Shown here piece by piece: positions 4,138 through 64,000 of a DNA stretch of 64,000 nt. How positions within the stretch are numbered: the first letter of the stretch is position 1; each line of letters begins with the position of its first letter. This stretch comes from Marinoscillum furvescens DSM 4134 (lineage in GTDB: Bacteria > Bacteroidota > Bacteroidia > Cytophagales > Cyclobacteriaceae). The stretch lies in the NCBI RefSeq assembly GCF_003386095.1, contig NZ_QREG01000002.1:2724-66723 (forward strand). The letters are read 5' to 3'. A model generated the notes under the pieces. The model worked only from the letters and a program-made list of their open reading frames with translations, did no database searches and was not told where the DNA came from. Position numbers and translations under genes: made by a program.

Positions 4138-6777
4138 CTAATCAAATGCCACAGTCAGGGCGTCACCCTGGAAGTCTACCGTTTTAGTAGTGCCTCCGAT
4201 CATTTCTACCTCAAACGTCATTGGCGCCTGAGCCAGGTCCAGGTAGTCACCCGCACCTTTTTGGATGGTCAACGCTTTTTTAGTTTCGTCATACGAAAGC
4301 GCTATTTCTGAAAAAGCCCCTTGCTCATAAGCATAGCTCAGGTTGTCGTCATAGTACAGCGTAAATGTGGCATCCGCTCCCGGATAGATTTTGAGTGTGG
4401 TAGGTGCGTCTGTCTTCTGAGTGGCATACTGCACCTTCGGGCCAAATGGCACAATGGAGCCCGCTTTCACAAAAAGTGGGGTTTCGTCCAGAGGTGCATC
4501 CACAGTAATGTTTTGCGCACCCGATACCTGCTCGCCAGTCCAGTAGTTGTACCAGCTGCCAGCCGGCAAATACAGCGCTTTTTCACGCTCCTGATATTCT
4601 GTCACTACACCTACCAGCAGCGACTCACCAAAGAAAAACTGATCTTTGACAGCCCAGGTATTGGGATCGTCCGGATAGTGGTAAGCCAGCGGAGCCATCA
4701 GCTGACGGCCATTTTGTGTGATCTGCCATGCCTGCGAGTAGATGTAGGGCATGAGCTGGTAGCGCAGGTCGATAAACTTGCGTGCGGTGTTTTCAAACGC
4801 CTCATTGTATCGCCAGATTTCGGTCTCCGACACATAGCCATGGATTCTGAAAATAGGGCTAAAGGTGCCAAATTGAAACCAGCGTGTGAGCAGCTCAATA
4901 AACTCCGGGTTGGTATACTGGCTGTCAAAGAGGTTGTTGATGGACTTTGAATCTCTAAAAAACCCACCGATATCATGCGTCCAGTAGGGTACGCCCGCCA
5001 TGGTGAAGTTGAGGCCGGCGGCTATTTGCTCTTCCAGCTGCTCCCAGGAGGCCTCCGTGTCGCCCGACCAGGACGTAGCCCCATAGCGCTGCTGCCCAGC
5101 ATATGCCGAACGAGTCAGATTAAATACCCGCTCTTCTGGAAACTCTGCCCGCCTGCCTTCATATACCGCACGGGTCACCTCCAGCGAATAGGTGTTGTGC
5201 ACCACTTCAAATGGCCCCACTGCTGTCATGGCTTTTGCGTCTTTCACACCTTCCGGCTCGGTACCATCCAGCCAGATGGAGCTTACCCCCCACTGAAACA
5301 TGGAGTCACTCAGCATCTGGTAAAACCGATCCGCCACACCTTCATCATAGATATCGATGTAATTGCTGCTCGGTATTTTGGTGAGCGCATATTTTTCTTC
5401 CAGCCCTTTGTTTTTCACCTCTGGCCAAACGGATACCATCAGCTTCATGTTCAGGTCGTTCACTTCTTTGACCATCGCCTGTGCATCCGGGTATTTGTTG
5501 CGATCCCACTCCGGTCCTTTGGTGCCCTTGGGCCAGTAAAACCAATCCTGTACGATGTAGTCTACAGGGATTTCTCTATTGCGCATTTCGCGGGCATTTT
5601 CCAATAGCTCCGCCTGATTGTGATACCGCTCTCTACACTGCCAGAAGCCATAAGCTTTCTTGGGAAACAGTGGCGTTTGCCCCGTCAGCACGTGATTTTG
5701 GGCAATAACCTCACCAGGGTTTTCTCCGGCAATAAAATAATAGTCGATGCTGCTGCCCACAGCACTGCTAAAGACGGTTTTGTTGTAATCCGGCTCATTG
5801 TAAAAAAGCCGGCCGGGAATCCTGGCACCACTGTTTTGAAAAACCACTTTATAGGTTTTGCCTCCTTTGAGGTATTTCCTACCCGAATACCTTCTCGGCA
5901 TCCAGATGGTAGAGTAGTTGATCACCTCATCGCCATCTATGCTCACGATGATCTCCCCACGCATACGACCGTCATTGTCACTCAAAGCCAGAAAGGTGTA
6001 TTCTCCTGTTTTCTCGGGTGTAAAAGTCGTTTCGCGGATGTTCTTTTTCTCGGCTTCTTTGCTGGCATAGGCTGCCACATTTTCTTTTTCACCTCCCTCG
6101 GGTACCACCTGCTCCTCGCCTCCCGTAGCTACTTCTGCTTTGGTAGCAAACTGTATCTCATGCTGAGGTTCGTTGATATCCGTCAGGCTGTAGTTGTGCC
6201 AATAGATTCCATATCCTTTGGTAGACACCAAAAAGGGAATCGCGATCTCCTGGTTGTACTGCTGCAAGCGAATGGGTACATTTTTCCAGTTCATAATGCC
6301 GCTCTGAAACTGTCCCAGTCCATACAGTGCCTCCTCTCCTGCCACAAATGCCTGCGACACGTCATTGCCCTCAGCACCCGGTACTATGTAAGTCTGCTCC
6401 CGGGTTTCGGCGAGCAGCTCATTACCATCAGCGTCCGCATACCGAATGATCCCAGCGCTGTTCACCACCACTTTCATTTTGGAAGTAGCCAGGGTGAGCG
6501 CATCGGCAGATTCGGTCACCTCCCACGCCACGTCCTGTGGCTCCAGCACCGTTACATAGTCGGGCAGCTTGGACTCAGTACCCCTTTGTGGCGTTTTAGT
6601 CACATGAATGATGGCTTCATTCATCACGGTAAGCTCTATGGTGAGGCTGTCATGGTAAATAGTAAGCCCATTTTGGCCCTTATTATACTTCAGTGAGTAA
6701 GATTGCCCACAGGCGCTGAGCGCCATCAACATACAAATGCCAACAGCAGCACACAGGTTTTTCCAGTTAGGTTTCAT
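4138..6777 (-). CDS. GH31 family alpha-glycosidase with PA14-like insert (alpha-xylosidase-like), lipoprotein
   Basis: This 879-residue lipoprotein (lipobox ending at Cys23) is predicted to be exported to the outer membrane or periplasm. Domains in order are a GH31 N-terminal beta-sandwich (about 30-210), a PA14-like insertion (about 235-335), the GH31 TIM barrel (about 365-700), and C-terminal beta-sandwiches with a final hydrolase-associated domain. The catalytic nucleophile is Asp504 in IWLDGTEPEG and the acid/base is Asp573 in WSGDTEASW. A PA14 insert at this place is known in xyloglucan-active alpha-xylosidases, so release of alpha-linked xylose is the best guess; other GH31 specificities (alpha-glucose, alpha-galactose) remain possible. 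It is the most distal gene of the left enzyme block, 27 bases after the DUF6250-like gene. Confidence 0.9.
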   Translation of the reverse strand: MKPNWKNLCAAVGICMLMALSACGQSYSLKYNKGQNGLTIYHDSLTIELTVMNEAIIHVTKTPQRGTESKLPDYVTVLEPQDVAWEVTESADALTLATSKMKVVVNSAGIIRYADADGNELLAETREQTYIVPGAEGNDVSQAFVAGEEALYGLGQFQSGIMNWKNVPIRLQQYNQEIAIPFLVSTKGYGIYWHNYSLTDINEPQHEIQFATKAEVATGGEEQVVPEGGEKENVAAYASKEAEKKNIRETTFTPEKTGEYTFLALSDNDGRMRGEIIVSIDGDEVINYSTIWMPRRYSGRKYLKGGKTYKVVFQNSGARIPGRLFYNEPDYNKTVFSSAVGSSIDYYFIAGENPGEVIAQNHVLTGQTPLFPKKAYGFWQCRERYHNQAELLENAREMRNREIPVDYIVQDWFYWPKGTKGPEWDRNKYPDAQAMVKEVNDLNMKLMVSVWPEVKNKGLEEKYALTKIPSSNYIDIYDEGVADRFYQMLSDSMFQWGVSSIWLDGTEPEGVKDAKAMTAVGPFEVVHNTYSLEVTRAVYEGRRAEFPEERVFNLTRSAYAGQQRYGATSWSGDTEASWEQLEEQIAAGLNFTMAGVPYWTHDIGGFFRDSKSINNLFDSQYTNPEFIELLTRWFQFGTFSPIFRIHGYVSETEIWRYNEAFENTARKFIDLRYQLMPYIYSQAWQITQNGRQLMAPLAYHYPDDPNTWAVKDQFFFGESLLVGVVTEYQEREKALYLPAGSWYNYWTGEQVSGAQNITVDAPLDETPLFVKAGSIVPFGPKVQYATQKTDAPTTLKIYPGADATFTLYYDDNLSYAYEQGAFSEIALSYDETKKALTIQKGAGDYLDLAQAPMTFEVEMIGGTTKTVDFQGDALTVAFD

Positions 6778-6804
6778 GTGAATGGTGTTAAACTCGATAA
6801 ATGT

Positions 6805-7593
6805 TTACTCGTCTACTTTCGTCAGACGGTACACTTTAAAGTTGTCCAGGGTCATGTGGTTGTGGACGGTTCGTAGCCCAAAGTGGCCTTCGGTATAAGG
6901 GTTGGGGTCACGATAATCGTAGATCAGCTCGCCGTTTCGGTAGTACTGAATGACACCATCGTAGGCCACCAGGCGAATTTGCTTGAGCTGGTTTGGGGTG
7001 ATCAGGTATTTAGGATCAGAAAGGTCATGTTCCGGGAGCAGCGGCTTTTCGCCATTACCAGAGTACCTTCTAAAGCGGGTCTTGGTATTGAAGTGCCCAC
7101 CCATGCCCGTGTAGTACAAGCTCAGCGAATTGTAATTGGTAAACTTCCCAGACCGGCTTTCGGAGTTGGCAAAAAGGTTGTCCGGGTTTTCGCTATCAGT
7201 AGCCATCCAAAAGCAGTTGAGATCCGATGCCCGGTCATAGATACCGTCTTCTTCCTCGCTCTTGGTAGTATCCTGAAGCACCACCGCATCGTATTCGATC
7301 ATGATGGGCCCCTCCAGCTTTTCTTTAAACCACACCGTACACCCACGCCAGTCATTTACCTCCAGTTTTCCATCCTTATGGTACACGCTCCCTTTGGGCA
7401 TTTGCTCCACTTTCCAGTTGGAGATGCCTTCCGAAAAATCGTCACTATGAATCAGCTCCGCTTTCACTTTCAGGTCATCCGTAAGCTGGATGATCCGTGC
7501 CTCTTTTTGCTCTTGGCAGCCTATGGCAAAAAGGGCTACCAGGCTCACAGTCAGTGTACAAAATTTTGTTCTCAGCGTTGAATAAGGTGTCAT
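6805..7593 (-). CDS. DUF6250-like (concanavalin-type) lipoprotein
   Basis: This is a 262-residue lipoprotein with a lipobox ending at Cys26 (LFAIGC). The mature part reads as one beta-sandwich of the LamG/DUF6250 type: an opening 'DDFSEGISNWKVEQ' segment, a central Trp/Phe-rich strand set, and the closing pair 'NGELIYDYRDPNPYTEGHFG' followed by 'LRTVHNHMTLDNFKVY'. Proteins of this type sit in many PULs next to lyases and propeller hydrolases and are thought to bind or cleave glycans, but the activity is not established here. It lies 18 bases after the propeller hydrolase gene, probably in one transcript. The assignment rests on pattern recognition, not alignment. Confidence 0.7.
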   Translation of the reverse strand: MTPYSTLRTKFCTLTVSLVALFAIGCQEQKEARIIQLTDDLKVKAELIHSDDFSEGISNWKVEQMPKGSVYHKDGKLEVNDWRGCTVWFKEKLEGPIMIEYDAVVLQDTTKSEEEDGIYDRASDLNCFWMATDSENPDNLFANSESRSGKFTNYNSLSLYYTGMGGHFNTKTRFRRYSGNGEKPLLPEHDLSDPKYLITPNQLKQIRLVAYDGVIQYYRNGELIYDYRDPNPYTEGHFGLRTVHNHMTLDNFKVYRLTKVDE

Positions 7594-7611: not shown

Positions 7612-9195
7612 CTAAAACGATAAAGTGATTTTTTCTATGATGGGTTTGGAATCGTTTTCGGTAGCATCCGTGATCATTACTTCAAACTGGAATCCGTAGC
7701 CTTCGGGCAGGTTGCTTAGGTCCAGGCGGGCGGGTGTTTTGGCTACTTGCTTCGAAAAACCCTCTACGTAATCGTAGGATTCTTTCACAGGTTTCCACGC
7801 CGACCAGTAGTCAGCCAGCCCGTCGTTATCCGTATCTATGCCTACGCGGATGTCTACATTTTCCACCCATGGTCCCGGGCTCACAAAATCCAGGCTTTGC
7901 TGTGTGGCCAGGTAAAACTGGCCTTCTGCGAACATGATATCCGGATCGGGATGCCCCTGACCGATGTTTCCACAAAAGGTAAAAGGCTCGTTGATATCCG
8001 ATGAGGTAAACCATGCCACGCTCATGTCCTTGTTGCCATGCCCCTCTGCCGGATCAATATCCCCAAACAAATAATACTGCCCTCCGATGGAGATAGCCGC
8101 CCAGTCGCCGAAAGCATGCTGAGCGGGCTCGTGTATTTCATACTTTCCAAAAGCGCGCTTCTGGCCCTTTTTAATCCTATGCTGAGGGACATCCTCTTTA
8201 GCTTCCCTGGCGGGAAAGCGATCCGGCGCCTCTGCGTGCCAGTGCGGGTGTGGATATTCGGCAAACTCACCCGTAGGTGTGGTGCGCTCGTCCACGGGAG
8301 GGTCCAGAATCTCGAAATCGCCATACCCTTTGGTGCCCACCGCATGCATGGCCAGTGGAGAATCCCACCCGTTTTTGGACGCATCGATGGGTGACCAGTC
8401 TTCCAATATAAGATGAAACTTGCCTTGCATATCCCGGATGATGGCACAGTCAGAACCGTGAGAGGGATCCCAAAAAGCCATACCGATGTTTTCGCCAGGC
8501 TTTCCATCGGTCAGGTCCTCATCGATGTAGAGGTGTGGATCCTGATCATTGGGAAAGTCATAGTAGAGGTAAAACTTGCCGTCTACATACTCTGCAGAGG
8601 TCATCCAGCGTGAAGCATATTCCGATACGGGGCCATGGTGCACCCAGGTTTTCAGGTCTTTGCTCTGCCACGCGTGGTAGCCTCCCAGCGAAGGATTGAG
8701 CCCGCCCGGCGCATCGTACTGCTCCGGAAAAGGCGTGGTTTTGAGCGGCACGTCATACCCTTCGAGGGTGACTGGCTTACCTTCAAAGTCTTCCTTTTTC
8801 TTTCCTTTTGGAAATTGGTAGCGCCCAAACATCCAGTAGTCGCCTGCTTTGGTGCGCAGCATGATGGGCGCATCTCCCAGGTTGGAGGGCCCGATGTTGG
8901 CCACCGGCTGCCAGTTTTGCCATACGGGCGACTGCTCCACCACGATTTCGCTGGCAGCCCGCTTCGTAGCAAACCGCTTGAGCCTGCTGGTGTAAGTAGC
9001 CTTCCGGGCTGTAGGCACCGCCGCACCGTTTTCAAAAGTCAGGTTAGTGGTGTTGGCCGCCTGCTCCTGCCACTCGGTTTGTGTAGCGATCACCCAGTCT
9101 TGCCCAACCGCAGGGGTGCTGCAGGCCATCACTCCCACGGCCAAAACCATTTTTTGTATCCAATAGCGCTTCATGCTTCGCTTTCTTTTGTTCAT
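7612..9195 (-). CDS. Exported beta-propeller glycoside hydrolase-like protein (GH43/GH117-type fold)
   Basis: This 527-residue protein has a basic N terminus followed by a hydrophobic signal peptide (about residues 15-31). The body shows repeated blade-like strands typical of five-bladed propeller hydrolases: 'GDAPIMLRTKAGDYWMFG', 'GGYHAWQSKDLKTWVHHG', 'SAEYVDGKFYLYYDF', 'AIIRDMQGKFHLILEDWSP', 'FGDWAAISIGGQYYLFGDID'. The SKDLKTW phrase is common in GH43/GH117 relatives. Acidic residues in 'LILEDWSP' and 'FGDID' are catalytic candidates. The exact family and linkage are not determined. The start overlaps the sulfatase stop by four bases (ATGA), which implies translational coupling in the operon. 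Confidence 0.75.
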   Translation of the reverse strand: MNKRKRSMKRYWIQKMVLAVGVMACSTPAVGQDWVIATQTEWQEQAANTTNLTFENGAAVPTARKATYTSRLKRFATKRAASEIVVEQSPVWQNWQPVANIGPSNLGDAPIMLRTKAGDYWMFGRYQFPKGKKKEDFEGKPVTLEGYDVPLKTTPFPEQYDAPGGLNPSLGGYHAWQSKDLKTWVHHGPVSEYASRWMTSAEYVDGKFYLYYDFPNDQDPHLYIDEDLTDGKPGENIGMAFWDPSHGSDCAIIRDMQGKFHLILEDWSPIDASKNGWDSPLAMHAVGTKGYGDFEILDPPVDERTTPTGEFAEYPHPHWHAEAPDRFPAREAKEDVPQHRIKKGQKRAFGKYEIHEPAQHAFGDWAAISIGGQYYLFGDIDPAEGHGNKDMSVAWFTSSDINEPFTFCGNIGQGHPDPDIMFAEGQFYLATQQSLDFVSPGPWVENVDIRVGIDTDNDGLADYWSAWKPVKESYDYVEGFSKQVAKTPARLDLSNLPEGYGFQFEVMITDATENDSKPIIEKITLSF

Positions 9196-10637
9196 TCGTT
9201 TTCAGTCCATACATGACTTCCCGCTAGCAGGGCATCATATTCACTTATCAGTAGCTGCTTCATGGCCGTCAGTTTTTCCGGGTTTTTATTAGCCAGATTT
9301 TCGCTTTCGCTGATGTCGGCGGTGAGTTTATACAGCTCAAAATCCACCAAATCTGCTTCTTTGATGGTATTGATGTTTCCGGGGTACACGTTGGTATAGC
9401 GCTGCAAGTAGCTCGTGTCCGTCTTCAGGCGAGCGAGGATTTTCCAGTCACCATCACGCATGGCCACCCGATGCTCGTTGAGGGCATTGTAAAAAGCCCA
9501 CACCAAAGGCTTTTCGCGGTTGTAATCTTTAGCCTCTAATAGCGGTACAATAGACTCACCATCCAGCGTGCGGCTGGGCAGCTCGGCACCCGCCAACTCA
9601 CAGAAGGTAGGCATGAAGTCCAGCGATGACACCACCGCTTCTGAGGTACCTTTCGGTAACGATTTTCCTAGCCAGCTGATGATGCCCGGCACACGAAAGC
9701 CCGCCTCGTACGTCCAAAGCTTCATGCCACGCAAGTCTCCCGGCGAGCCGTAGGATCGCTTGGCCCTGTGATAGCGCATGAGCGTTTCCGGACCATTGTC
9801 GGAAGTAAACACAATCAGGGTGTTGCCTCCATGCTGCGCTTTGAGGTAATCCACCAAACGGCCTACGGCCAGGTCTACATTTTCTACATTGGCGAAGTAT
9901 TCCGCTTCTTCCAGTGTGCTGGCCTGTGGACGGTATTTGTCTACCAGATCCTGCGGAGAAGCTACTGGCTCGTGTGGCTCATGAAAAGTAACCTGAAGGT
10001 AAAATGGTTGCTCTTTCTTTTGCTGCTGTAGCCAGCTGAGTGCCTCATCTACCACAATCTGGCAGCTGTAGCCTTCGATCTCCCCTACATCTTCGCCATT
10101 CCGCACAAAGTTCTTAGGGTTTTCGTGGCTGGGTGCGGCGTTGTTGTGCGTGGCAAACCAGTGGTCAAAGCCAAAGTGATCGGGTGTCGGTTGCTTTTCA
10201 GGTTGATTGAAATACGAGCTGCAGTGCCACTTCCCGGAAAGACACGTGGCATAGCCTACGGATTTCAGCCTTGCCGGGATCGTTTCTTCATGAGCCTGCA
10301 GGTGCACCATGTACCTTAGGTTTTCGGTTTTCTTTGGTCCGGGTATAAAGTCATAAATCCCCGCACGATTTGGGCTCCTGCCCGTAAGAAGTCCTGCTCT
10401 GGACGGAGAACACACCGGTGCTGCTGAGTAAAAGCTGGTAAATTTCATTCCTTCTTCAGCCAGCTGATCCAGATTGGGCGTTTGGATCACGGGGTGTCCA
10501 TAAGATGACAGGTCTCCATAGCCCAGGTCATCACATAGTATCACTACGATATTGGGTTGCTCGTTGCCCTCCTGGCAAGCCACAAATGCCATGGCCCACA
10601 CCAGCAATATTCCTATTCTAAACATTTTCATTTTCAC
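9192..10637 (-). CDS. S1 family sulfatase, lipoprotein
   Basis: This is a 481-residue exported sulfatase with a lipoprotein signal (Cys21). The formylglycine signature is C76-S-P-S-R80 followed by AGLLTGR. The N-terminal metal-binding pair is Asp36-Asp37 (VVILCDDLGYGD). Also visible are SGKWH (Lys/His of the sulfate pocket) and the distal 'FTSDNGPE' metal motif with Asp and Asn. It removes sulfate esters from a carbohydrate after the Cys is matured to formylglycine by an anaerobic or aerobic enzyme not found in this window. Length is usual for S1 exo-sulfatases. The stop overlaps the start of the downstream propeller hydrolase. The S1 subfamily, and so the sulfated position, cannot be assigned by eye. 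Confidence 0.93.
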   Translation of the reverse strand: MKMKMFRIGILLVWAMAFVACQEGNEQPNIVVILCDDLGYGDLSSYGHPVIQTPNLDQLAEEGMKFTSFYSAAPVCSPSRAGLLTGRSPNRAGIYDFIPGPKKTENLRYMVHLQAHEETIPARLKSVGYATCLSGKWHCSSYFNQPEKQPTPDHFGFDHWFATHNNAAPSHENPKNFVRNGEDVGEIEGYSCQIVVDEALSWLQQQKKEQPFYLQVTFHEPHEPVASPQDLVDKYRPQASTLEEAEYFANVENVDLAVGRLVDYLKAQHGGNTLIVFTSDNGPETLMRYHRAKRSYGSPGDLRGMKLWTYEAGFRVPGIISWLGKSLPKGTSEAVVSSLDFMPTFCELAGAELPSRTLDGESIVPLLEAKDYNREKPLVWAFYNALNEHRVAMRDGDWKILARLKTDTSYLQRYTNVYPGNINTIKEADLVDFELYKLTADISESENLANKNPEKLTAMKQLLISEYDALLAGSHVWTENE

Positions 10638-13642: not shown

Positions 13643-13652
13643 CTTTATCGTA

Positions 13653-16310: not shown

Positions 16311-16357
16311 ATATTCTATCAATCGTTGGGAAAATTTATGATCGCAATATCGAATAA

Positions 16358-19507: not shown

Positions 19508-19552
19508 ATTCTCCATTTTCAATTCCAAATCTTTAAACTCGTACTAAACACC

Positions 19553-21321: not shown

Positions 21322-21351
21322 GTTTTTTCCTTTAAAATTTGAGTCAAACAA

Positions 21352-56012: not shown

Positions 56013-57281
56013 CTACTTCCAAACCCAGGGATCAAAAGGCTCCAGGTCTAGCATGGCCATGCCGGCCATCAAAACCGCACCTATTCCATGGGGGTCGTCT
56101 GGGACTGGTGGTATCCGGTAATAGAAGGGCAAGTCTGTGCGCAGGTTGAAGCCCAGGCTGATACCATCTACAGTGCCATCGGCTCTGATCTGGTCGGTAA
56201 GTCCCTGCCAGGCAGCAATCACTACCGGCGTATATAAGTTGTCCAACCACCCCTGGTGAATGGCTACGGCCATGGCATAGCAAAACATGGCTGTCCCGGA
56301 AGACTCCAGGAAGCTGTCCTGCTTATCCAAAAGCTGATGCCACATGCCTCCAGCATCCTGATAGCGAGTCAGACCTGTTAGGTGGCGGTTAAAATTGCTC
56401 AGCAACTGATCTCGATCAGGATGAGTCTTGGGCAATGCCTTCAACAACTCTGTATAAGCCATCGCCACCCATCCATTGGCCCGCCCCCAGTGGGCTACCC
56501 CATTTACCCCCAGATCGGGATAGTAGCAGTGATAGTACAGGCCTTTCGATTCCTCAAAAAGATGCTTATGGGTATGGAGCGCCATTTGCACCGCATCCTC
56601 CAGCAGTGCATCCTCTCCCGTTTGTTGCCACCTACGCACCAAAAAAGGAATGCTCATGTAAGCGTCATCGGCCCACACGCTGCGCCTGCCCTCGCAGGTG
56701 CGACTAAAGGTGCCATCGGGAAGTCTGTCCTGTTGTTTGGTAATGTACTGGGTGACACGCTCCAGCCGTGATTCGAAGGTTTTCGTATGCTTTAGCTGAC
56801 TGGCTGCGATGAGACCGGCATCCATGGCTCCACAGTCGTCCAGGCGATCCAGCCTGAAAAACTGGTGCATGCTCCCGGAGTGGTTGCCTGATACATATTG
56901 CTGCTCGAAAAACGCCTGATTACGAAAAGTAAATTCGTAATTGGCCAAAACGTACTCCTGATAACTGGGTGCCTTAAATCGCTCTGCCAGTTCTAAAAAC
57001 GCCAGGTGAATGACCCCATTCCAGTATTTCCAATCGTTGAAGCCACTGCGAATTTTGACAGCTTTCATGTCTGCCGACAACTCCGCAATTCGTTCCCCTG
57101 ATTTGGATTCAAAATCAAAACTTGTAGCATCCACTACCCGATCAGCGATCTGCAAGAGCAGTGCCTTTACACTCCTGTGGTCTGGCAGCTGATCCAGCCG
57201 GTTGGTTTCAGCCATCATCTGGTGATAAACCTCACCCATGCGGGTATGACTGTCTTTTGCTTTTGTCTGTGTAGTGCTCAT
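56013..57281 (-). CDS. GH88/GH105 unsaturated uronyl hydrolase
   Basis: This cytosolic or periplasmic alpha/alpha-barrel hydrolase of about 422 residues removes 4,5-unsaturated uronic acid from lyase products by hydration of the double bond. Family features are SRTCEGRRSVWADDAYMSIP with the Asp pair of the active site, then GRANGWVAMAYTELLKALP, and QLLDKQDSFLESSGTAMFCY. No signal peptide is visible. The ATG at 57281 has AGGGA just upstream and starts nine bases after the KduD stop. An ORF extension upstream to 57401 would overlap KduD by 112 bases and is rejected. The substrate (glucuronyl, galacturonyl or iduronyl) cannot be fixed. Confidence 0.9.
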   Translation of the reverse strand: MSTTQTKAKDSHTRMGEVYHQMMAETNRLDQLPDHRSVKALLLQIADRVVDATSFDFESKSGERIAELSADMKAVKIRSGFNDWKYWNGVIHLAFLELAERFKAPSYQEYVLANYEFTFRNQAFFEQQYVSGNHSGSMHQFFRLDRLDDCGAMDAGLIAASQLKHTKTFESRLERVTQYITKQQDRLPDGTFSRTCEGRRSVWADDAYMSIPFLVRRWQQTGEDALLEDAVQMALHTHKHLFEESKGLYYHCYYPDLGVNGVAHWGRANGWVAMAYTELLKALPKTHPDRDQLLSNFNRHLTGLTRYQDAGGMWHQLLDKQDSFLESSGTAMFCYAMAVAIHQGWLDNLYTPVVIAAWQGLTDQIRADGTVDGISLGFNLRTDLPFYYRIPPVPDDPHGIGAVLMAGMAMLDLEPFDPWVWK

Positions 57282-57289
57282 AATTCCCT

Positions 57290-58060
57290 TTATCTTCCCA
57301 TCCATCCTCCATCTACTGTAAGGATGGTTCCGTTGATATAATCTGATGCTCTGGAGGACAGGAATACCACCGGCCCTGCCAGGTCTGTCGGTTGTCCCCA
57401 CCTGCCCTGAGGTATACGCTCCAGTATGGCGCCGTTGCGTAGCGTGTCTTTTCGCAGTGCCTCGGTATTATCCGTGGCGATGTAGCCTGGTGCTAAAGCG
57501 TTCACATTCAGCCCTTTGTCGGCCCATTCATTGGCCAGGGCTTTGGTCAACTGACCGATTGCGCCCTTGCTCGCGGCATATCCGGGCACGGTGATGCCTC
57601 CCTGAAAGGTGAGCAAGGATGCGGTAAATATGATTTTGCCACTTCCTCGCTCCAGCATGTCCTTGCCGATTTCTCTGGCGAGGATAAATGGGGCGTTGAG
57701 GTTTACATCGATCACCTCGCCCCAGTAGGCATCTGGATGGTCTGCTGCTGCAGCACGCCGGATAGTGCCCGCATTGTTGAGCAAAATATGCGGTGTATCG
57801 TGAGCTGCTCGCAGTTGTGCTATGAACTGTTGTAGACCTGCCCGTTCATTAAAATCACAGCTGTAAGCATCAAATCGCCTGCCCAGTGCGCACACTTGCC
57901 GAGCCACCTCATCATCAGGCTGCAAAGTGGCCGAGACCCCAATGATATCTGCGCCTGCTTCTGCCAGGGCAAGGGCCATAGCCTTACCTATTCCTCGCTT
58001 GCAGCCGGTCACTACTGCCAATTGACCGCTCAGATCGAATGGATTAGTTTTCATTTGCAA
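57290..58060 (-). CDS. kduD: 2-deoxy-D-gluconate 3-dehydrogenase / KduD SDR
   Basis: This is a 256-residue SDR: TGCKRGIGKAMA for NAD(P), NNAG, a catalytic Ser in TASLLTF, the Y-A-A-S-K motif and the C-terminal 'NGTILTVDGGWMGR', which is close to the KduD ending. It reduces 2,5-diketo-3-deoxygluconate to 2-keto-3-deoxygluconate, the next step after KduI. The 5' end overlaps the BNR_4 gene stop by 17 bases from this start, or 11 from the internal ATG at 58054, so translation is likely coupled. KduI lies 3.6 kb away in the same transcriptional direction, with GH88/105 and the symporter in between. Confidence 0.9.
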   Translation of the reverse strand: MQMKTNPFDLSGQLAVVTGCKRGIGKAMALALAEAGADIIGVSATLQPDDEVARQVCALGRRFDAYSCDFNERAGLQQFIAQLRAAHDTPHILLNNAGTIRRAAAADHPDAYWGEVIDVNLNAPFILAREIGKDMLERGSGKIIFTASLLTFQGGITVPGYAASKGAIGQLTKALANEWADKGLNVNALAPGYIATDNTEALRKDTLRNGAILERIPQGRWGQPTDLAGPVVFLSSRASDYINGTILTVDGGWMGR

Positions 58061-59648
58061 TCGGGGTTTGGTCTAGTGGGTCTTCCAACAATTTCTGAGG
58101 TTTGGCCTCATCATCTTCCATATACTCCGGCAGGCCATATACACTGCCTTGTTTGTCGGCATAGTAAAGCCTGCTTTTTGATACTTCCCGCGCATGGCCA
58201 TCTGCCCAAAAGGCATAAAAGTCTGGATGCGCATTCAATGGTTTGCGGACATACGTGTGGTTGTATGCACTGCCCGATGTGAGCGCTCGTTCGAGCTGCC
58301 AGGACTCGCCCTGGTCGGTACTCACATACATGCCTACTTCTCCTCCCGGATTGTATGCCTGTGCGCCCTTAAGTGTCGGTGCCATCACCACCCATCGGTC
58401 CTCGCGTTCGGTGTAGATGGAGCCCATGTCGTAGTTGTGGTCTGAAGTAGTGATCTGCGAGTGCAGCCACTTCTCACCATTCCATTTGGCCAGCCGCCAG
58501 GTACGGGGATCATTGTCAGGACCTGACTCATAGCCTCTACTGGTGAGGTACAGGATTGCAGGATTACCAGCTGCATCGTACACCATGTCTTTCATGTAGA
58601 CCAGCAAACTATCCGCTTCGTAGGCCTTGACCAGCGCCGGGCTGTTGACGTCTGTTAGTGGCGTTTCTAATGGCTGACCTCCCACTGTTTTCCAGCTATT
58701 GCCAAAATCATCTGTCTCCATATAGTAGAGGTTGGTGCGGTAGTTGAGTCCCTGCTCAGGTAGTTTCTTCCGTGGGTGGTAGTTAAACGCCACCCCGGCC
58801 TTTTCTCCGTTTTGTGTACTGATGGGGTAGTGTCCTTCTCCTATGGCTCCGATGGTCTGCCACTCAGACCATGCGCTTCCGTTTTTGCTTGTCGCAAAGA
58901 CTAACGTACGCTGTGCGGGGTTGCCATGTGGTCCCACAATGGTGCCGCCTGCATCCGAATAGCTGCTGAAGAAGGCCAAAAACCCTCGGTATTTTAGATG
59001 CCATGGCTGAAAATAGGAAAAGTTATCCATCGGTACTTCTTGCCCATTTTCCATTTTTACCGGACGAATCAGCTCGAACGAATCGATGGAGTAAGGTTTC
59101 TTGCTTTTGTGGATATACGCCGGTCGCCAGCTGCCATGCGCTGTACTAAATATCCAGATATAGCCGTCATCATCTATCGAGATGACCGGGTTGTCATGTG
59201 CATCGCCTGTCAGCTTGTCCAGCAAGATGGTAGGGCGTGGAACGGTACCCGTTTTGTGGTCAAAGTAGGAAACCATGTGCCAGAGGCGTTCATTGTTTGA
59301 GGGTGCTGCTCCTCCGTAAGTGAAAAATGTCTTTTGGGCCTCAGGACTGTAGATGGCAAGTGGGCGATGCTTGGCTGTATAGGTAGCCAGTCCTCCACTG
59401 TACTTGTATTTGTACTCGTTATCGAGCGGTTGGTTATGATCCCAGATACCCCGATATCCTGTGTCTTTGACATTGGCCGTAATGGTACCGGGATCCGTAC
59501 GCGTATCGGTCTCCAGCCCTTCGATGGCATTGCCCTCATAGGTGAAGGTGTGCGGGTCAGGCAATTGCATTGGTCGCCGGACCTTGCTACATGCTCCTGC
59601 CACCAGCATTAAAATTGGGAGCAGTCTAAAAGTTGTTTTCCAGTTCAT
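58044..59648 (-). CDS. BNR_4-type beta-propeller lipoprotein, second copy (lyase candidate)
   Basis: This 534-residue lipoprotein (Cys20, LVAGAC) has the BNR_4 signature 'GDAHDNPVISIDDDGYIWIF', then STAHGSWRPAYIHKS, with His151 and His171 spaced as in PL24/PL25-type propellers. Additional blades are 'GNPAQRTLVFATSKNGSAWS', 'VAFNYHPRKKL' and 'DHNYDMGSIYTEREDRWVVM'. It is only distantly like the 44533-45909 protein, so the two probably attack different linkages. It is placed directly before KduD and GH88/105, which process unsaturated uronates, and this supports a lyase role. An alternative is a non-catalytic binding protein. Confidence 0.8.
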   Translation of the reverse strand: MNWKTTFRLLPILMLVAGACSKVRRPMQLPDPHTFTYEGNAIEGLETDTRTDPGTITANVKDTGYRGIWDHNQPLDNEYKYKYSGGLATYTAKHRPLAIYSPEAQKTFFTYGGAAPSNNERLWHMVSYFDHKTGTVPRPTILLDKLTGDAHDNPVISIDDDGYIWIFSTAHGSWRPAYIHKSKKPYSIDSFELIRPVKMENGQEVPMDNFSYFQPWHLKYRGFLAFFSSYSDAGGTIVGPHGNPAQRTLVFATSKNGSAWSEWQTIGAIGEGHYPISTQNGEKAGVAFNYHPRKKLPEQGLNYRTNLYYMETDDFGNSWKTVGGQPLETPLTDVNSPALVKAYEADSLLVYMKDMVYDAAGNPAILYLTSRGYESGPDNDPRTWRLAKWNGEKWLHSQITTSDHNYDMGSIYTEREDRWVVMAPTLKGAQAYNPGGEVGMYVSTDQGESWQLERALTSGSAYNHTYVRKPLNAHPDFYAFWADGHAREVSKSRLYYADKQGSVYGLPEYMEDDEAKPQKLLEDPLDQTPIANEN

Positions 59649-59705: not shown

Positions 59706-60569
59706 TCACTGTAAGGTTTTTTCTGAATTAGTCCGTTTCAAGTCGGAGAGAGGCAGCATACTTACCGCCTCTTTCATCTTCAAATTGAGCTCCCATTGAT
59801 CAGCCAACGGCTGCCCTGTAAAAGGCACTTGTGCCATGTATGGTGCTGGCCCAAACTCCGGGGTGAGGGTAAGGTTTTGTCCCTTGAGGTGTAGAACCTG
59901 ACTCCACCATTCCATGTGTACGCGTAGGGCTTCCTCGTTTTCGGGTAAGAAAGGATCCACTACCTGAGGACCATGCCGGTGGCCTACCCGCAAATGCAGA
60001 TGATCGGTGCGTGAAAATGCCAGCTTCAGTGCTTCCGACTGGTCGTGTAGCCATGACTCACAGACGCACGCCCAGTGCGAAAAGTCACCCGCCAAACGCA
60101 ACTCGGGGTACTTCTCCAAATAAGGTTGAGTTGCAAACGGCGCGAATGAAAACTTGCCCCTATGAGTCTCGTGCACGAGTGTTATTCCTGAGCGCTCAGA
60201 CCATTCTGCTGCCATTTCCAGCAACTCACAGTTTTGGTCGAAAGTGAAGTAATCCTTCCCTGTTTGAGCGTTGACGAATATGGGCATCAACTCTTCCAAT
60301 TCAGCAAGTTTACGCTGATAAAGCGATTTGTATTCATCGAAATGCATAGAGGGGGCATTCCAGGGTATGGCCACCTGAGCCACCAGCTGCAACTCATAGT
60401 AATCGAGAAGTTGTCGTAACTCAATATTTAACTTACTCCATGTTGGCACTGAAGTTTCTATACCCTTATAGCCGCTTTCTTTCACCAGGCGTAAAAAAGA
60501 CTCTGGCTTTCGATCATGAAATCCCCATACTGTAGCGTAAAAATTCATTTCACTGGTTTTTATCGACAC
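59706..60569 (-). CDS. Sugar phosphate isomerase/epimerase-like TIM barrel (AP endonuclease 2 family)
   Basis: This 287-residue soluble protein of the xylose isomerase-like superfamily has a TIM barrel with metal ligands in GITLVHETHRGKF (Glu, His), LAGDFSHWACVCES (Asp, His), 'TDHLHLRVGHRHGPQVVDPF' (His residues) and LTLTPEFGPAPY (Glu). The family covers sugar isomerases, epimerases and dehydratases; the substrate is unknown. Such proteins are frequent in carbohydrate loci and may act on keto- or deoxy-sugars. It is 14 bases from the dioxygenase gene and 57 bases before the BNR_4 gene, likely one transcript. There is no signal peptide. Confidence 0.8.
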   Translation of the reverse strand: MSIKTSEMNFYATVWGFHDRKPESFLRLVKESGYKGIETSVPTWSKLNIELRQLLDYYELQLVAQVAIPWNAPSMHFDEYKSLYQRKLAELEELMPIFVNAQTGKDYFTFDQNCELLEMAAEWSERSGITLVHETHRGKFSFAPFATQPYLEKYPELRLAGDFSHWACVCESWLHDQSEALKLAFSRTDHLHLRVGHRHGPQVVDPFLPENEEALRVHMEWWSQVLHLKGQNLTLTPEFGPAPYMAQVPFTGQPLADQWELNLKMKEAVSMLPLSDLKRTNSEKTLQ

Positions 60570-60583: not shown

Positions 60584-61342
60584 TTAATGGCCATCTCGCC
60601 CACTCACCTCATCTGCCTGGATCTGAGTCACTCCATGGATGTCTGTCCATCTGGGATGATCCAATAGTTTCACACGCTGGCCATTTACCTCAGCTATTAC
60701 ATCATTGCGATGAAATTGTACCGCATAGGCCACTCGATTGTCGTTCGTATCGTTTGGACCGCTACCATGCACTGTCAATCTGTCAAATGCGACCACATCT
60801 CCTGGCTCCATGTCGAGCACCTGGAAGTCTTCAGGCTCAAAATCGAGTGTAAGGTGATGATCACCTTCACCTGCATTTACCGCTTGCAAGTCTCCCATTT
60901 TGTGCGATCCGGGAACCACCTGCAAAGCACCGTTTTTCTCAGAGGTAGTGACAAAAGGGGCCCATATATTGATGCCTGGTCCTTCGAAAGTTGTGTATTG
61001 ATTGTCCTGATGAAAATGAAACTTACCTCCTCCTCCACCGCTTTTCACGGCCGAGAAAGGTAAATACATCGTAGCCTCACCTCCCATCAGTTGACTAGCA
61101 ATGCTTTTTAGGAGTTGGCTATTGATGTAAGCATCCAATGTGGAGCCTTTGAGGTACTGCTGCGTTTGCCGCAGTTTTGTATGCCCCAGCCCGATGACAG
61201 ACATGATATGATCAATGTCTGATTTAATATCCTGAGCCAGAGTTGAAGAAAACACAGTTCTGAGCACGACATATCCATGCTCCTGATAGTGCTTCAAATC
61301 ATCAGCACTACAGGTGTAGGCAGAAAAACTAGAAGAGTTCAT
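60584..61342 (-). CDS. Phytanoyl-CoA dioxygenase (PhyH) family protein
   Basis: This non-heme Fe(II)/2-oxoglutarate oxygenase-like protein of about 252 residues has the iron motif in FHFHQDNQYTTF (His-x-Asp), the distal His in LTVHGSGPNDTNDNR, and the Arg that binds 2-oxoglutarate just after it. The N terminus 'DLKHYQEHGYVVLRTVFSS' is typical of PhyH. Members hydroxylate small molecules; a role in a PUL is unusual, possibly modification or demethylation of a methylated sugar. The ATG at 61342 (MNSSSF) is preferred; an earlier start at 61414 adds 24 residues with no support. Confidence 0.82.
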   Translation of the reverse strand: MNSSSFSAYTCSADDLKHYQEHGYVVLRTVFSSTLAQDIKSDIDHIMSVIGLGHTKLRQTQQYLKGSTLDAYINSQLLKSIASQLMGGEATMYLPFSAVKSGGGGGKFHFHQDNQYTTFEGPGINIWAPFVTTSEKNGALQVVPGSHKMGDLQAVNAGEGDHHLTLDFEPEDFQVLDMEPGDVVAFDRLTVHGSGPNDTNDNRVAYAVQFHRNDVIAEVNGQRVKLLDHPRWTDIHGVTQIQADEVSGRDGH

Positions 61343-61426
61343 CCGTTGAAATTTTGTGATTAAATGAATTTTGGATTTGGGATATCGTGGGTGACAAAAA
61401 CTAGCTCTTGTCACCCGCGGTATGAG

Positions 61427-62812
61427 CTATTTTGCCCACCAAACTTTATCTGCATTCGTTAGGCTTGTAAATGTTTGCCCTTCTAAATTGCTATTGATAT
61501 CCGCCTCGCTATTAGGCAATGGGAACTTTACAGGTTGTTCTTCCTGATTTGCAGGTATACCCGTTCGCCGAATATCATTGTAGGCTTCTATGCCTTGATA
61601 CACAAAGAATGACAAAAACTTTTGTCTCATGATATCCTCTAATGCTAAGGCGCTCGCACCAGGAAAAACTTCCGAAGCAGCTGCAAAGGTGGCAATAGCT
61701 GCTGCGTCTACCCCAAATGAGTTCATAGACGCGGTAACAGCAGCTTCATAGGCATCATTGGACGCTACGGTATTGCCCTGTCGGAGCAGTGTCTCAGCCT
61801 CTATAAATTTCAACTCACTAAAAGTTAACAGCGGCATAGGAGCAGCTGGCCCAAAGAAGGGTGCTTTTGGAGCCGAAAAGTCATTGTAAAGCCCCCCAGA
61901 CTCTGCAAAACCTATAGCGCCTTTATAGGTATTATCATGAAGTGTCATCCATATTTCGGCACGTGGATCGGTAACACTATCACCGTTTTCAAATTGGAGA
62001 AGCGTGTTCACAAATGTACTATGAACTACCAGGTCCGCATTTAGATTGCCGATTGGATTTCGGTTATTTTCGCTGTAACCTGAAAAGACCAAATTGTCAT
62101 CATTGCTCTGATAAGCTGACGCCAGCGCGGCAATGATCTGATCATCATGATCGCTTCTATTACTCAGCCGATTTAAGTATCGTGCCTTCAGTCCGTAAGC
62201 AGTTTTGAGCCAAAGTCCAATATTTCCTCCATAAAACTGATCTACACCAGCAAAATCATCCTCAGCACCTTTTCCTAAATCTGCAATTCCACCTTCTAGC
62301 AAAGCCAATACTTCTGCATAAATTGCTTCCTGGGTATCAACTTTAGGGTTTTGAATCTGAGTAGGCTTACCCGTTTCAGAATAAGGGATATCTCCAAACA
62401 AATCAGTTGCGACTGCCAGAGTATAGGCTTTCAGCACCTTTGCACACCCTGCAAAATTCCAACTTTCATTCGCTTCAGCACGGGTGATGATTTGCTCAAA
62501 ATCATTGAGTGTATAGTACATCTGTACCCATGTAGGAGTAGCTGTAAAGTCTGCTCGATAACCATTGTTGGTGGAGTTTGACAGTAGCTCCGAAAATGTA
62601 GCGGCTGCCACAGCTGAAGTATTACCCATAACATTGGTCACCAGGCGCTCGGATGCAGCGACCCATACATTGACCGGCAGGACCTGCTGCGGGTTGAGTG
62701 CGTTTGGATCCGTATCTATTTCATTGAGCACTTCATCACTACAGCTCCATCCAAAAGTGCTCATACTAAGTATCAGAATGGATTTGATGATATTTTTATT
62801 GATCGAATTCAT
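61427..62812 (-). CDS. SusD-like (SusD_like-2 type) lipoprotein of the second transporter pair
   Basis: This 461-residue lipoprotein (lipobox STFGWSC) has 'DEVLNEIDTDPNALNPQQVL', an N-terminal feature of the SusD_like-2 (SusD/RagB-related) family, helical repeats 'NFAGCAKVLKAYTLAVATDL' with FGDIPYSE, and a C-terminal 'LTFSELKFIEAETLLRQGN', then FVYQGIEAYNDIRRTG. It pairs with the SusC-like gene to its right (gap about 125 bases) and would bind a different oligosaccharide than the first pair. It is about 84 bases before the dioxygenase, so both may be cotranscribed. Confidence 0.93.
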   Translation of the reverse strand: MNSINKNIIKSILILSMSTFGWSCSDEVLNEIDTDPNALNPQQVLPVNVWVAASERLVTNVMGNTSAVAAATFSELLSNSTNNGYRADFTATPTWVQMYYTLNDFEQIITRAEANESWNFAGCAKVLKAYTLAVATDLFGDIPYSETGKPTQIQNPKVDTQEAIYAEVLALLEGGIADLGKGAEDDFAGVDQFYGGNIGLWLKTAYGLKARYLNRLSNRSDHDDQIIAALASAYQSNDDNLVFSGYSENNRNPIGNLNADLVVHSTFVNTLLQFENGDSVTDPRAEIWMTLHDNTYKGAIGFAESGGLYNDFSAPKAPFFGPAAPMPLLTFSELKFIEAETLLRQGNTVASNDAYEAAVTASMNSFGVDAAAIATFAAASEVFPGASALALEDIMRQKFLSFFVYQGIEAYNDIRRTGIPANQEEQPVKFPLPNSEADINSNLEGQTFTSLTNADKVWWAK

Positions 62813-62937
62813 GTCGTTAATATTTTATAATGCGTGCCGAAGTAAGACATTGAAGTCATGAGCCAAACATTCATCCTTCAGGTGATCATGATGTCGAATG
62901 ATTGAACTCATTACTTCAGGCATTTACATTTAGTTGG

Positions 62938-64000
62938 TTAAAAAACAAGCTTTAAGCCTCCACCAAAGCTCTTGGTCACCGGATAAGTACTGTACTCGAT
63001 ACCGAATGTCTCGCCTTCGGTCTGTCTCAGGTTTTCCGGATCTGAATTCGGGTAGTCCGTGATGAGTAGCAAGTTTCTCCCCACGATGTATGCCGAAATA
63101 CCCGAAAACAGCGGTACATCAACCACCTTCGTAAGGTCAAAATCCAACCGCAGTTCACGTAATCGCACAAAAGACGTCTCATAAGTGTAAAACTCATTGT
63201 TGCCATCTACGCCACCTCTCCAGGGGGCATCAAAATATGCCTGACCTTTAACGATCGCTATATCGTTAGCCTCGCCGGTAGATACAATCTCCCCATCTAC
63301 GACACTGCCTTTGACCCCATCTATCACTACTTCCGTTTCTCGATCTTCAGTAAAAGCAAATGTTCCTAAACGTCCTCCTAATCGATTTGGTCCTGAAAAT
63401 TGATTTCCACCTTTTCTCCAGTCAATCTGAGCGGAAAGCGACACAAACTTGTAAGTAAACCGATTGATAAATGACATTTCAAAATCAATAGGCGCCTCTG
63501 CATAAGTTTGTGGGGTTATGGAAGTGAGAGGTATCCCAGTGGAGCTATCTACGATGATACGGCCTTGATCATCTCGTGCGTAGACTCGACCTCTGAGCGC
63601 TGGAAACCGCCTGCCTTCTTCCACTACCAGCGACATTCCATTAAAACCAGATTCATTGTAAGCGAGCCTCTTCACACCTGTTTCATCATCCGTTTCTACT
63701 CCTTCTGAGGTGATTTCAGTAACTACATTGTTATAGGAAGTAAAATTGGTGGTCAAATCCCAGCGAAAACCATTAGTCACTATCGGAGCTACTGTCAACG
63801 AAATTTCATGTCCATTACTTTCTACGGTAGCGGCATTTTCTAAAATGGAGGACGCAGTAGTAGAAGCAGGTAGCTGTCGCTCAATGATCTGATCTTCGGT
63901 TCGTGTATCAAAATAGGTGTAATTAAAATTGATTCGATCATTTAGGAAACCAAGGGCCAGATTATATTCCATTCCTTTTGTATTAACTGGGCGTAAATCT
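62938..64000 (-). CDS. SusC-like TonB-dependent transporter, partial (C-terminal part)
   Basis: The frame is open through the right edge, so only the last 353 codons or so are seen; the N-terminal carboxypeptidase-like domain, plug and most of the barrel lie outside. The visible part shows barrel strands ending in the aromatic terminus 'GGGLKLVF', with 'DRINFNYTYFDTRTEDQIIE' and 'VSLSAQIDWRKGGNQFSG'. It is the partner of the SusD-like gene at 61427-62812. The track-type start inside the window is not a real start; residues DLRPVNTKG precede it in frame. Confidence 0.93.
   Translation of the reverse strand, partial: DLRPVNTKGMEYNLALGFLNDRINFNYTYFDTRTEDQIIERQLPASTTASSILENAATVESNGHEISLTVAPIVTNGFRWDLTTNFTSYNNVVTEITSEGVETDDETGVKRLAYNESGFNGMSLVVEEGRRFPALRGRVYARDDQGRIIVDSSTGIPLTSITPQTYAEAPIDFEMSFINRFTYKFVSLSAQIDWRKGGNQFSGPNRLGGRLGTFAFTEDRETEVVIDGVKGSVVDGEIVSTGEANDIAIVKGQAYFDAPWRGGVDGNNEFYTYETSFVRLRELRLDFDLTKVVDVPLFSGISAYIVGRNLLLITDYPNSDPENLRQTEGETFGIEYSTYPVTKSFGGGLKLVF

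What the first reader, a model, noticed from the sequence alone, without database searches (positions are those of the whole stretch)
4138..64000. About 60-kb PUL whose gene content points to a sulfated, fucose- and uronate-containing glycan
Fucose side: GH29 fucosidase, two GH141-like helices, an F-type lectin domain and a complete oxidative 6-deoxyhexose operon. Uronate side: heparinase II/III-like lyase, two BNR_4 propellers, GH88/105, KduI and KduD. Sulfate: two S1 sulfatases. Xylose/galactose: GH31 and GH2. I know of no well-described PUL with this exact combination, so the target may be new (for example a fucoglucuronan or glucuronate-rich fucoidan). No rhamnosidase family is recognised, which weighs against plain ulvan.
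Basis: partly seen in the sequence, partly recalled or inferred. Interest (0 to 1): 0.75.

Follow-up and report, generated by a model that had tools for sequence, protein, structure and literature searches.

The report
Brown-algal fucoglucuronomannan degradation locus plus neighbour
The left half of this marine bacterial gene cluster carries a close relative of the known enzyme that cuts sulfated fucoglucuronomannan, a brown-seaweed polymer, inside a gene set that recurs beside that enzyme in other seaweed-degrading bacteria; the right half is a second sugar-uptake system whose target is still unknown.

Summary
The gene content is real, with corrections, but the 60 kb hold two SusCD systems. 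The decisive gene was missed: 16493-19528, seen as an F-type lectin helix, has a domain 65% identical (292/447) to FdlA, the crystallised lyase of sulfated fucoglucuronomannan (SFGM), with the five mapped active-site residues kept. Its neighbours (GH31, DUF6250, two S1 sulfatases, GH28, a PL40-like lyase) recur at 53-77% identity near FdlA in other marine genomes: one sulfatase within 60 kb of FdlA in 16 of 20 genomes, the PL40-like lyase in 14 of 20. The 'heparinase II/III-like' lyase is a distant relative (25%) of ulvan lyase Uly1040, in an FdlA-linked clade lacking a histidine of the Uly1040 metal tetrad in 10 of 10 members examined. The left half most likely targets SFGM, a known polymer, with an L-fucose oxidation operon beside it. 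A similar PUL (Maribacter dokdonensis 62-1) was published as mixed ulvan and fucoidan. The right half (GH2, GH29, two GH141, two BNR_4, GH88, KduI/KduD, ECF-sigma SusCD) has no recognised sulfatase and almost no counterpart near FdlA elsewhere; its target is unresolved.

The parts
4138..6777 (-). GH31 glycosidase with a weak PA14-like insertion; core gene of FdlA loci
   Evidence: PF01055 E 1.3e-88; 66-69% identical copy in the FdlA region of 6 of 12 genomes
6805..7593 (-). DUF6250 protein, probable lipoprotein
   Evidence: PF19763 E 1.2e-64; 53-74% in 7 of 12 FdlA regions, 63-68% on two Persicobacter plasmids
7612..9195 (-). GH43-like protein
   Evidence: PF04616 30 bits, below its cut-off 32.2; no copy in 12 FdlA regions
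9192..10637 (-). S1 sulfatase S1a
   Evidence: PF00884 E 1.2e-64, CSPSR motif; 62-70% in 6 of 12 FdlA regions
10656..12194 (-). GH28-type beta-helix
   Evidence: PF00295 E 4.4e-16; 61-73% in 4 of 12 FdlA regions
12167..13672 (-). S1 sulfatase S1b, the most constant companion of FdlA
   Evidence: PF00884 E 4e-40, CTPSR motif; within 60 kb of the best FdlA hit in 16 of 20 genomes
13653..16322 (-). PL40-like lyase; clade lacking the second His of the Uly1040 metal tetrad
   Evidence: Uly1040 E 1.3e-33; clade and residues; within 60 kb of the best FdlA hit in 14 of 20 genomes
16493..19528 (-). FdlA-type sulfated fucoglucuronomannan lyase (residues 25-481) with PA14, F-type lectin, ricin-B and T9SS tail
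   Evidence: PDB 7xzf E 1.2e-190, 292/447 identical; domains
19621..21351 (-). TIG/DUF4979 protein in the position of a SusE/F glycan-binding protein
   Evidence: PF01833, PF16351; 34% on a Persicobacter plasmid
21352..23169 (-). SusD 1
   Evidence: PF07980 E 6.8e-41
23176..26400 (-). SusC 1
   Evidence: PF13715, PF07715
26606..30709 (-). hybrid two-component regulator (HTCS)
   Evidence: Reg_prop, HATPase_c, Response_reg, HTH_18
30960..32123 (-). FMN-dependent L-lactate dehydrogenase-like
   Evidence: PF01070 E 3.6e-114; NF008398 284 bits, below its cut-off 376
32484..33266 (-). L-fucose dehydrogenase
   Evidence: NF052481 417.6 bits, cut-off 300
33274..34104 (-). L-fuconolactonase-like amidohydrolase
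   Evidence: NF052480 270.7 bits, below its cut-off 400
34110..34955 (-). 2,4-diketo-3-deoxy-fuconate hydrolase-like (FAH family)
   Evidence: PF01557 E 6.5e-77; NF053535 388.9 bits, below its cut-off 500
34973..35752 (-). SDR, probable 2-keto-3-deoxy-L-fuconate dehydrogenase
   Evidence: SDR family only; role inferred from position
35773..37380 (-). UxaA/altronate-type sugar-acid dehydratase, probable L-fuconate dehydratase
   Evidence: PF20629 E 1.5e-94; role inferred from position
37489..38496 (+). LacI-family regulator
   Evidence: PF00356, PF00532
38502..40970 (-). GH2 (right module)
   Evidence: PF18565, PF02836; no copy in 12 FdlA regions
41054..42583 (-). GH29, equally near an alpha-L-fucosidase and an exo-alpha-L-galactosidase structure
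   Evidence: PF01120 E 2.8e-96; 7snk 312 bits, 7ljj 309 bits
43185..44399 (-). L-lactate permease
   Evidence: PF02652 E 4.9e-63
44533..45909 (-). BNR_4 protein, probable lipoprotein
   Evidence: PF15892 E 1.2e-15; no PDB match at E 1
45909..47750 (-). unassigned secreted protein (P0001), family unknown
   Evidence: no Pfam, NCBIfam or PDB match; 31% homologue on plasmid OY725838.1
47897..50743 (-). GH141-like helix with ricin-B domain and T9SS tail
   Evidence: PF21231 35.8 bits, PF18962; 33% to the neighbouring GH141
50830..52812 (-). GH141
   Evidence: PF21231 E 3.4e-13; BT_1002 5mqp E 4.2e-49
52839..53666 (-). KduI
   Evidence: NF002091 356 bits, cut-off 250
53703..55874 (-). sodium:solute symporter (SSF)
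   Evidence: PF00474 E 1.4e-20
56013..57401 (-). GH88/105 unsaturated glucuronyl hydrolase (true start probably further in: overlaps KduD by 112 nt)
   Evidence: PF07470 E 4.6e-67; overlap
57290..58060 (-). KduD
   Evidence: TIGR01832 324.8 bits, just below its cut-off 338.85
58044..59648 (-). BNR_4 protein, weakly PL25-like
   Evidence: PF15892 E 3.6e-18; 5uam E 2.9e-4; matches in 50 of 390 genomes of the order, own included
59706..60569 (-). xylose-isomerase-like TIM barrel
   Evidence: PF01261 26.9 bits, below its cut-off 31.1
60584..61414 (-). PhyH-family oxygenase
   Evidence: PF05721 E 2.3e-22
61427..62812 (-). SusD 2 (SusD-like_2)
   Evidence: PF12771 E 4e-54
62938..64000 (-). C-terminal part of SusC 2; continues past the window to G000:C2:69140, followed by FecR, ECF sigma and a GH51-like gene (to C2:72916)

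Best explanation
Window 4138-30709 is an SFGM (glucuronomannan-type fucoidan) utilization locus. The HTCS senses an oligosaccharide. The exported FdlA-type lyase (T9SS tail), held on fucose by its F-type lectin, cuts the Man-alpha-1,4-GlcA bond by beta-elimination. SusC1/D1 import the pieces. S1a and S1b desulfate, and the PL40-like lyase, GH31 and GH28 trim. The adjacent operon (32484-37380, with LldD and a lactate permease nearby) oxidises L-fucose to pyruvate and L-lactate. The right module (38502 to about 6 kb past the window) is a second SusCD unit under ECF sigma/FecR. Its GH29, GH88, KduI and KduD could finish the FdlA product (unsaturated uronate on mannose with a fucose branch), but it probably also serves a different, unsulfated fucose/uronate glycan. 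Shown here: FdlA and PL40-like homology, residue conservation, recurrent linkage of the left genes. Inferred: substrate, order of steps, role of each trimming enzyme, sensing.
For: FdlA: E 1.2e-190, 292/447 identical; Lys141, His176, Phe179, Arg240 and Tyr242 (paper numbering, mapping mine) are kept. FdlA acts on SFGM, and polysaccharides without sulfated fucose were not cleaved (PMC9410043, passages). In the FdlA regions of 12 of 20 held genomes: S1b 69-77% in 11/12, PL40-like 59-69% in 8/12 (one cut by the edge), DUF6250 in 7/12, S1a 62-70% in 6/12, GH31 in 6/12, GH28 in 4/12. Genome-wide, S1b lies within 60 kb of the best FdlA hit in 16/20 and PL40-like in 14/20 (13 at 54-68%, one at 37%), against about 2.6% expected per genome. 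Parts of the set are on two Persicobacter plasmids. GH95 fucosidases lie within 7 kb of FdlA in 3 of the 5 loci from which ten ORFs were scanned. The own genome has 8 FdlA-family lyases. L-fucose dehydrogenase equivalog.
Against: No activity data. FdlA-family homologues down to 25% identity exist, so 65% supports but does not prove the same bond. SusC1, SusD1 and HTCS relatives at 42-48% were seen in only 2-3 of 12 regions. Of 20 FdlA genomes, 2 lack S1b and 3 lack the PL40-like lyase at E 1e-100. One Persicobacter stretch has no FdlA match, the other no S1b orthologue. The PL40-like lyase is kin to an ulvan lyase, and the second-best PDB match of S1b is named 'alpha-L-rhamnosidase/sulfatase (GH78)'. 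No GH88 relative lies in any of 12 FdlA regions, so the proposed last step is not part of the conserved set. The linkage genomes were chosen for holding FdlA and share ancestry, so the binomial tail overstates independence.
Confidence: 0.75

Rival explanations
1. All 60-70 kb are one integrated SFGM/fucoidan PUL: the left half depolymerises and desulfates, and the right half (GH29, GH88, KduI, KduD, symporter) finishes the trisaccharide.
For: The combined enzymes fit the known FdlA trisaccharides: GH88 for the unsaturated uronate, GH29 for fucose, Kdu enzymes and the fucose operon for the monomers. All listed genes but LacI are on one strand, mostly with short gaps.
Against: Two SusCD pairs with different regulators. 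In 12 of 12 FdlA regions there is no relative of the right-hand GH2, lactate permease, BNR_4s, P0001, symporter or GH88 at E 1e-3; KduI 51% and KduD 40% occur in one, and GH29/GH141 only as 21-28% paralogues in 7 of 12. Relatives of BNR_4 58044-59648 in two loci read more closely follow a SusCD beside non-fucoidan genes.
Confidence: 0.35
2. An ulvan PUL: PL40-like and PL25-like lyases cut ulvan, the Kdu enzymes take the uronate and the oxidation operon takes rhamnose.
For: PL40-like resembles Uly1040; BNR_4 58044-59648 is weakly PL25-like; PL40 was read as an ulvan lyase in Maribacter; an Algibacter PUL with GH29, PL40, PL25 and GH106 was read as fucoidan, ulvan and/or rhamnogalacturonan (PMC10233909, passages).
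Against: L-fucose dehydrogenase model 417.6 vs rhamnose dehydrogenase model 145.3. No rhamnosidase family in Pfam. An FdlA orthologue is present. PL40-like is 25% identical to Uly1040 and lacks a tetrad His whose mutation inactivates Uly1040.
Confidence: 0.05
3. A genuinely new polymer (fucoglucuronan or glucuronate-rich fucoidan without mannose).
For: No family dedicated to mannosidases was recognised in the window; no close counterpart of the right module was found.
Against: An FdlA orthologue implies a Man-GlcA backbone, and a lyase plus GH88 would free mannose without a mannosidase (inference).
Confidence: 0.12

Closest known systems
FdlA/FdlB fucoidan lyases, Flavobacterium sp. SA-0082 (PDB 7xz7-7xzf; PMC9410043, passages)
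   Same: Catalytic domain 65% identical, mapped active-site residues kept, F5/8-type and T9SS C-terminal domains
   Different: Here 1011 aa (697 in FdlA) with added PA14 and ricin-B domains, and set in a SusCD/HTCS locus
Maribacter dokdonensis 62-1 'ulvan and fucoidan' PUL (PMC8072126, passages)
   Same: PL40 lyases, sulfatases, GH28, GH29, GH141, kduI/kduD and fuconate genes close together
   Different: There also PL33, GH95, GH97, GH117; PL40 read as ulvan lyase; FdlA not mentioned in the passages seen
Uly1040, PL40 ulvan lyase (PDB 9vtk; PMC12915356, passages)
   Same: Homologous over about 750 residues; Asn245, Trp246, Glu301, Tyr305, Asp358, His485 equivalents kept
   Different: 25% identity; the His487 position is Ser/Ala/Gly in the ten FdlA-linked clade members examined
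BT_1002 (GH141, RG-II alpha-L-fucosidase) and Wf141 endo-fucanases (PMC12786026, passages)
   Same: GH141 family
   Different: 50830-52812 matches BT_1002 at E 4e-49 (the other GH141 was not searched in PDB); both lack the HQxWxxxD signature of the fucoidan branch, but the 39 FdlA-neighbour loci checked lack it too, so this is weak
Flavobacterial FCSP PULs of North Sea isolates (PMC6298971, passages)
   Same: GH29, sulfatases, GH31, GH2 families; one FdlA genome found here (Polaribacter Hel1_85) is among those isolates
   Different: Described there by GH29/GH95 content; FdlA not mentioned in the passages seen

Membership tests
FdlA-type SFGM lyase | homology over the whole catalytic domain | tested here: met
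   residues 25-481, E 1.2e-190
FdlA-type SFGM lyase | residues Lys141, His176, Phe179, Arg240, Tyr242 | tested here: met
   all identical in the alignment; numbering mapped by me from motifs
FdlA-type SFGM lyase | beta-elimination activity on SFGM | not testable with these tools
   needs assay
PL40 ulvan lyase | base His485, acid Tyr305, Asn245/Trp246, Asp358 | tested here: met
PL40 ulvan lyase | His487 of the Mn tetrad (H487A inactive in Uly1040) | tested here: not met
   Ser in window; Ser/Ala/Gly in 10 of 10 clade members examined. [quoted passage not shown]
PL40 ulvan lyase | official CAZy assignment or grouping with P10_PLnc | not tested
Bacteroidota PUL | adjacent SusC/SusD with CAZymes and regulator | tested here: met
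   two pairs
Ulvan PUL | rhamnosidase and rhamnose route | tested here: not met
   no rhamnosidase in Pfam, only a 26.8-bit match to an NCBIfam rhamnosidase model with cut-off 700; fucose rather than rhamnose dehydrogenase
Fucoidan endo-fucanase GH141 branch | HQxWxxxD signature | tested here: not met
   absent in both window GH141s
SulfAtlas S1 subfamily | subfamily number | tested here: inconclusive
   S1b best PDB matches are an N-acetylglucosamine-6-sulfatase, a GH78 rhamnosidase/sulfatase and an arylsulfatase; S1a not searched in PDB; no SulfAtlas tool

The most novel reading that the evidence does not exclude
The PL40-like lyases linked to FdlA are a separate lyase (sub)family for the glucuronomannan of fucoidan that has dropped a metal ligand and uses a rewired or metal-free His/Tyr mechanism. 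FdlA plus this lyase, S1a/S1b, GH31, GH28 and DUF6250 form a portable SFGM module, chromosomal and plasmid-borne, and published 'mixed ulvan-fucoidan' PULs are SFGM PULs misread through the PL40 label.
Probability: 0.4. Interest if true: 0.62.

Novelty: new variant of a known kind. Interest (0 to 1): 0.48.

Why it matters
Fucoidan is a slowly degraded carbon store, and many genes of its degradation loci have no assigned function. A small gene set tied to the one structurally known SFGM lyase gives named enzymes to test (S1b, the PL40-like lyase, GH31, GH28). It also warns that a PL40 label does not by itself mean ulvan.

Tried and rejected
Ulvan PUL: rejected on fucose dehydrogenase, FdlA and absence of a Pfam rhamnosidase.

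P0001 (45909-47750) by single-sequence AlphaFold: pLDDT 42.8, not searched against folds. Its genome-contig scan found no relative. In the order, 2 of 291 genomes had a match, the window's own and one weak 89-residue match.

Finding the right module elsewhere: BNR_4 58044-59648 matches in 50 of 390 order genomes (own included, some weak), but 20 fetched 20-kb neighbourhoods showed no other module gene beyond general SusC/SusD/HTCS/SDR/sulfatase similarity. GH141 relatives at E 1e-30 are 29-35% in 12 of 395 class genomes, own included. SusC2 matched only itself at E 1e-200 in 395 genomes, with only 2 candidates scored per genome. GH88 matched in 10 of 20 FdlA genomes, at most 33% identity. BNR_4 44533-45909 had no match in plasmids.

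Paper searches for an FdlA-centred PUL: none seen in the titles, abstract starts or passages read. Listings were partial where more papers matched (e.g. 20 of 24, 30 of 164, 20 of 207, 8 of 1,152), and the library is open-access only.

Full report
Setting. The window is G000:C2:2724-66723 of a 5.96-Mb genome with 67 matches to the sulfatase family and eight FdlA-family lyases on three contigs, which suggests a specialist on sulfated algal glycans. The closest named FdlA relatives are in Cellulophaga baltica (68%) and Echinicola pacifica (67%); the species itself is not told.

What is in the window. Two identifications change the picture. The residues that the FdlA paper singles out (Lys141, His176, Phe179, Arg240, Tyr242; passages of PMC9410043) are kept; I mapped the numbering by eye through the GHIVF, FGKGG and IRAYN motifs. 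FdlA cleaves sulfated fucoglucuronomannan at Man-alpha-1,4-GlcA, does not cut polysaccharides lacking sulfated fucose, and ends in sulfated trisaccharides with fucose on mannose (same passages; the unsaturated uronate follows from the lyase mechanism). Second, 13653-16322 has no Pfam or NCBIfam match and is related to the PL40 ulvan lyase Uly1040 (E 1.3e-33).

A recurrent module. A scan of named genomes with the FdlA domain found 23 loci. I gave 21 of them to a whole-genome search; 20 genomes are held. In about 60 kb around the best FdlA hit of 12 of these 20 (48 kb in one) the left-hand genes recur at high identity: S1b in 11 of 12 (69-77%), PL40-like in 8 of 12 (59-69%, one cut by the region edge), DUF6250 in 7 (53-74%), S1a in 6 (62-70%), GH31 in 6 (66-69%), GH28 in 4 (61-73%). 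Echinicola keeps the order S1a-S1b-PL40-like, without the GH28 between. SusC1, SusD1 and HTCS relatives at 42-48% appear in only 2-3 of 12. Genome-wide at E 1e-100, S1b is found at 66-77% in 17 of 20, at 49% in one and not in two, and lies within 60 kb of the best FdlA hit in 16 of 20. The PL40-like orthologue is found at 54-68% in 16 of 20, at 37% in one and not in three, and lies within 60 kb of the best FdlA hit in 14 of 20 (13 at 54-68%, one at 37%), against about 2.6% expected per genome. The genomes are related and were chosen for having FdlA, so the binomial tail is only a guide. Two Persicobacter plasmid stretches carry parts of the module: both have PL40-like (54-55%) and DUF6250 (63-68%); one has S1b 70% and S1a 63% but no FdlA match, the other has FdlA 53% but no S1b orthologue. 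Ten neighbour ORFs from five FdlA loci gave GH95 in three loci, and GH39, GH43 and GH120 once each, as expected of fucoidan loci.

The PL40-like clade. In an alignment of 33 rows (29 distinct genes) the ten members of the FdlA-linked clade keep the catalytic His, Tyr, Asn-Trp, Glu and Asp of Uly1040 but carry Ser, Ala or Gly where Uly1040 has His487, the second His of its Mn tetrad; mutating it to Ala inactivates Uly1040 (PMC12915356, passages). The 18 other distinct paralogues keep H-x-H; a Pontiellaceae row has Gln. The clade is supported 100/100 in a tree of 29 rows, with Uly1040 a long branch of unsure place at 21-27% identity to all rows. In six of the nine non-window orthologue loci the lyase stands in tandem with an H-x-H paralogue; Formosa L2A11 also has an adjacent 30% paralogue, residue not looked at. 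Published work read a two-PL40 PUL of Maribacter dokdonensis as ulvan plus fucoidan (PMC8072126, passages). The linkage here makes SFGM alone a simpler reading for PULs of this type, unproven.

Fucose operon. 32484-33266 passes the L-fucose dehydrogenase model (417.6 vs cut-off 300) and scores 145.3 on the rhamnose dehydrogenase model. Lactonase and hydrolase match their models below the cut-offs; the SDR and the UxaA-type dehydratase are placed by family and position. LldD and a lactate permease fit the L-lactate end product. Five operon genes recur (44-66%) in the Tamlana laminarinivorans FdlA region, one (54%) in a Cellulophaga.

The right module. From GH2 to past the window end, genes precede a second SusCD whose regulators are FecR and an ECF sigma factor, with a GH51-like gene beyond. 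No sulfatase was recognised in it. In 12 of 12 FdlA regions there is no relative of its GH2, lactate permease, BNR_4s, P0001, symporter or GH88 at E 1e-3; GH29 and GH141 appear only as 21-28% paralogues in 7 of 12; KduI 51% and KduD 40% in one. Relatives of BNR_4 58044-59648 match in 50 of 390 genomes of the order. In two loci read more closely they follow a SusC and SusD behind a FecR- and sigma-like pair (Pfam-checked: the sigma factor in one, SusD in both; the rest by size, place and similarity), beside genes such as GSDH, Nramp, an acyl-CoA dehydrogenase type and an aminotransferase. GH29 is equally close to an alpha-L-fucosidase and an exo-alpha-L-galactosidase structure. The target stays open; its GH29, GH88 and Kdu enzymes could also finish SFGM trisaccharides.

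Verdict. Observation partly confirmed; interpretation partly supported. The left half is best explained as a sulfated fucoglucuronomannan locus: a known polymer with a known lyase, but in the listings and passages I saw no PUL described around that lyase. The new elements are the portable FdlA module and the PL40-like clade that lacks a metal ligand.

Noticed in passing
window 45909-47750 (P0001): Secreted 613-aa protein without Pfam, NCBIfam or PDB relatives; a 31% homologue lies on 'Subdoligranulum variabile' plasmid OY725838.1 with GH78, GH38 and GH2 genes within 20 kb. Possibly a new glycosidase family.
   Followed up: partly
L141, L142 (Persicobacter plasmids NZ_AP025297.1, CP012862.1): Parts of the core SFGM gene set sit on plasmids, suggesting transfer of the module.
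   Followed up: partly
G000:C20:25863-118916 and C10:75116-177448: Seven further FdlA-family lyases (C20 four, C10 three); two PL40-like paralogues with H-x-H at C20:57545-59974 and C20:116271-118916.
   Followed up: partly
G000:C2:71243-72916 (L144:10244-11917): GH51-like gene (alpha-L-arabinofuranosidase C-terminal domain, 28.9 bits) upstream of the ECF sigma, perhaps the outer end of the right module.
   Followed up: no
window 1-4000: GC falls to 0.38 against 0.445-0.517 in the other 4-kb blocks; an IS200-like transposase lies at 1342-1893, perhaps marking the left edge of the cluster.
   Followed up: no
L143 (Bacteroides finegoldii plasmid NZ_OY725958.1): A PL40-like heparinase-annotated protein (29.5%, H-x-H) near pflB and an HTCS in a gut Bacteroides record.
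   Followed up: no
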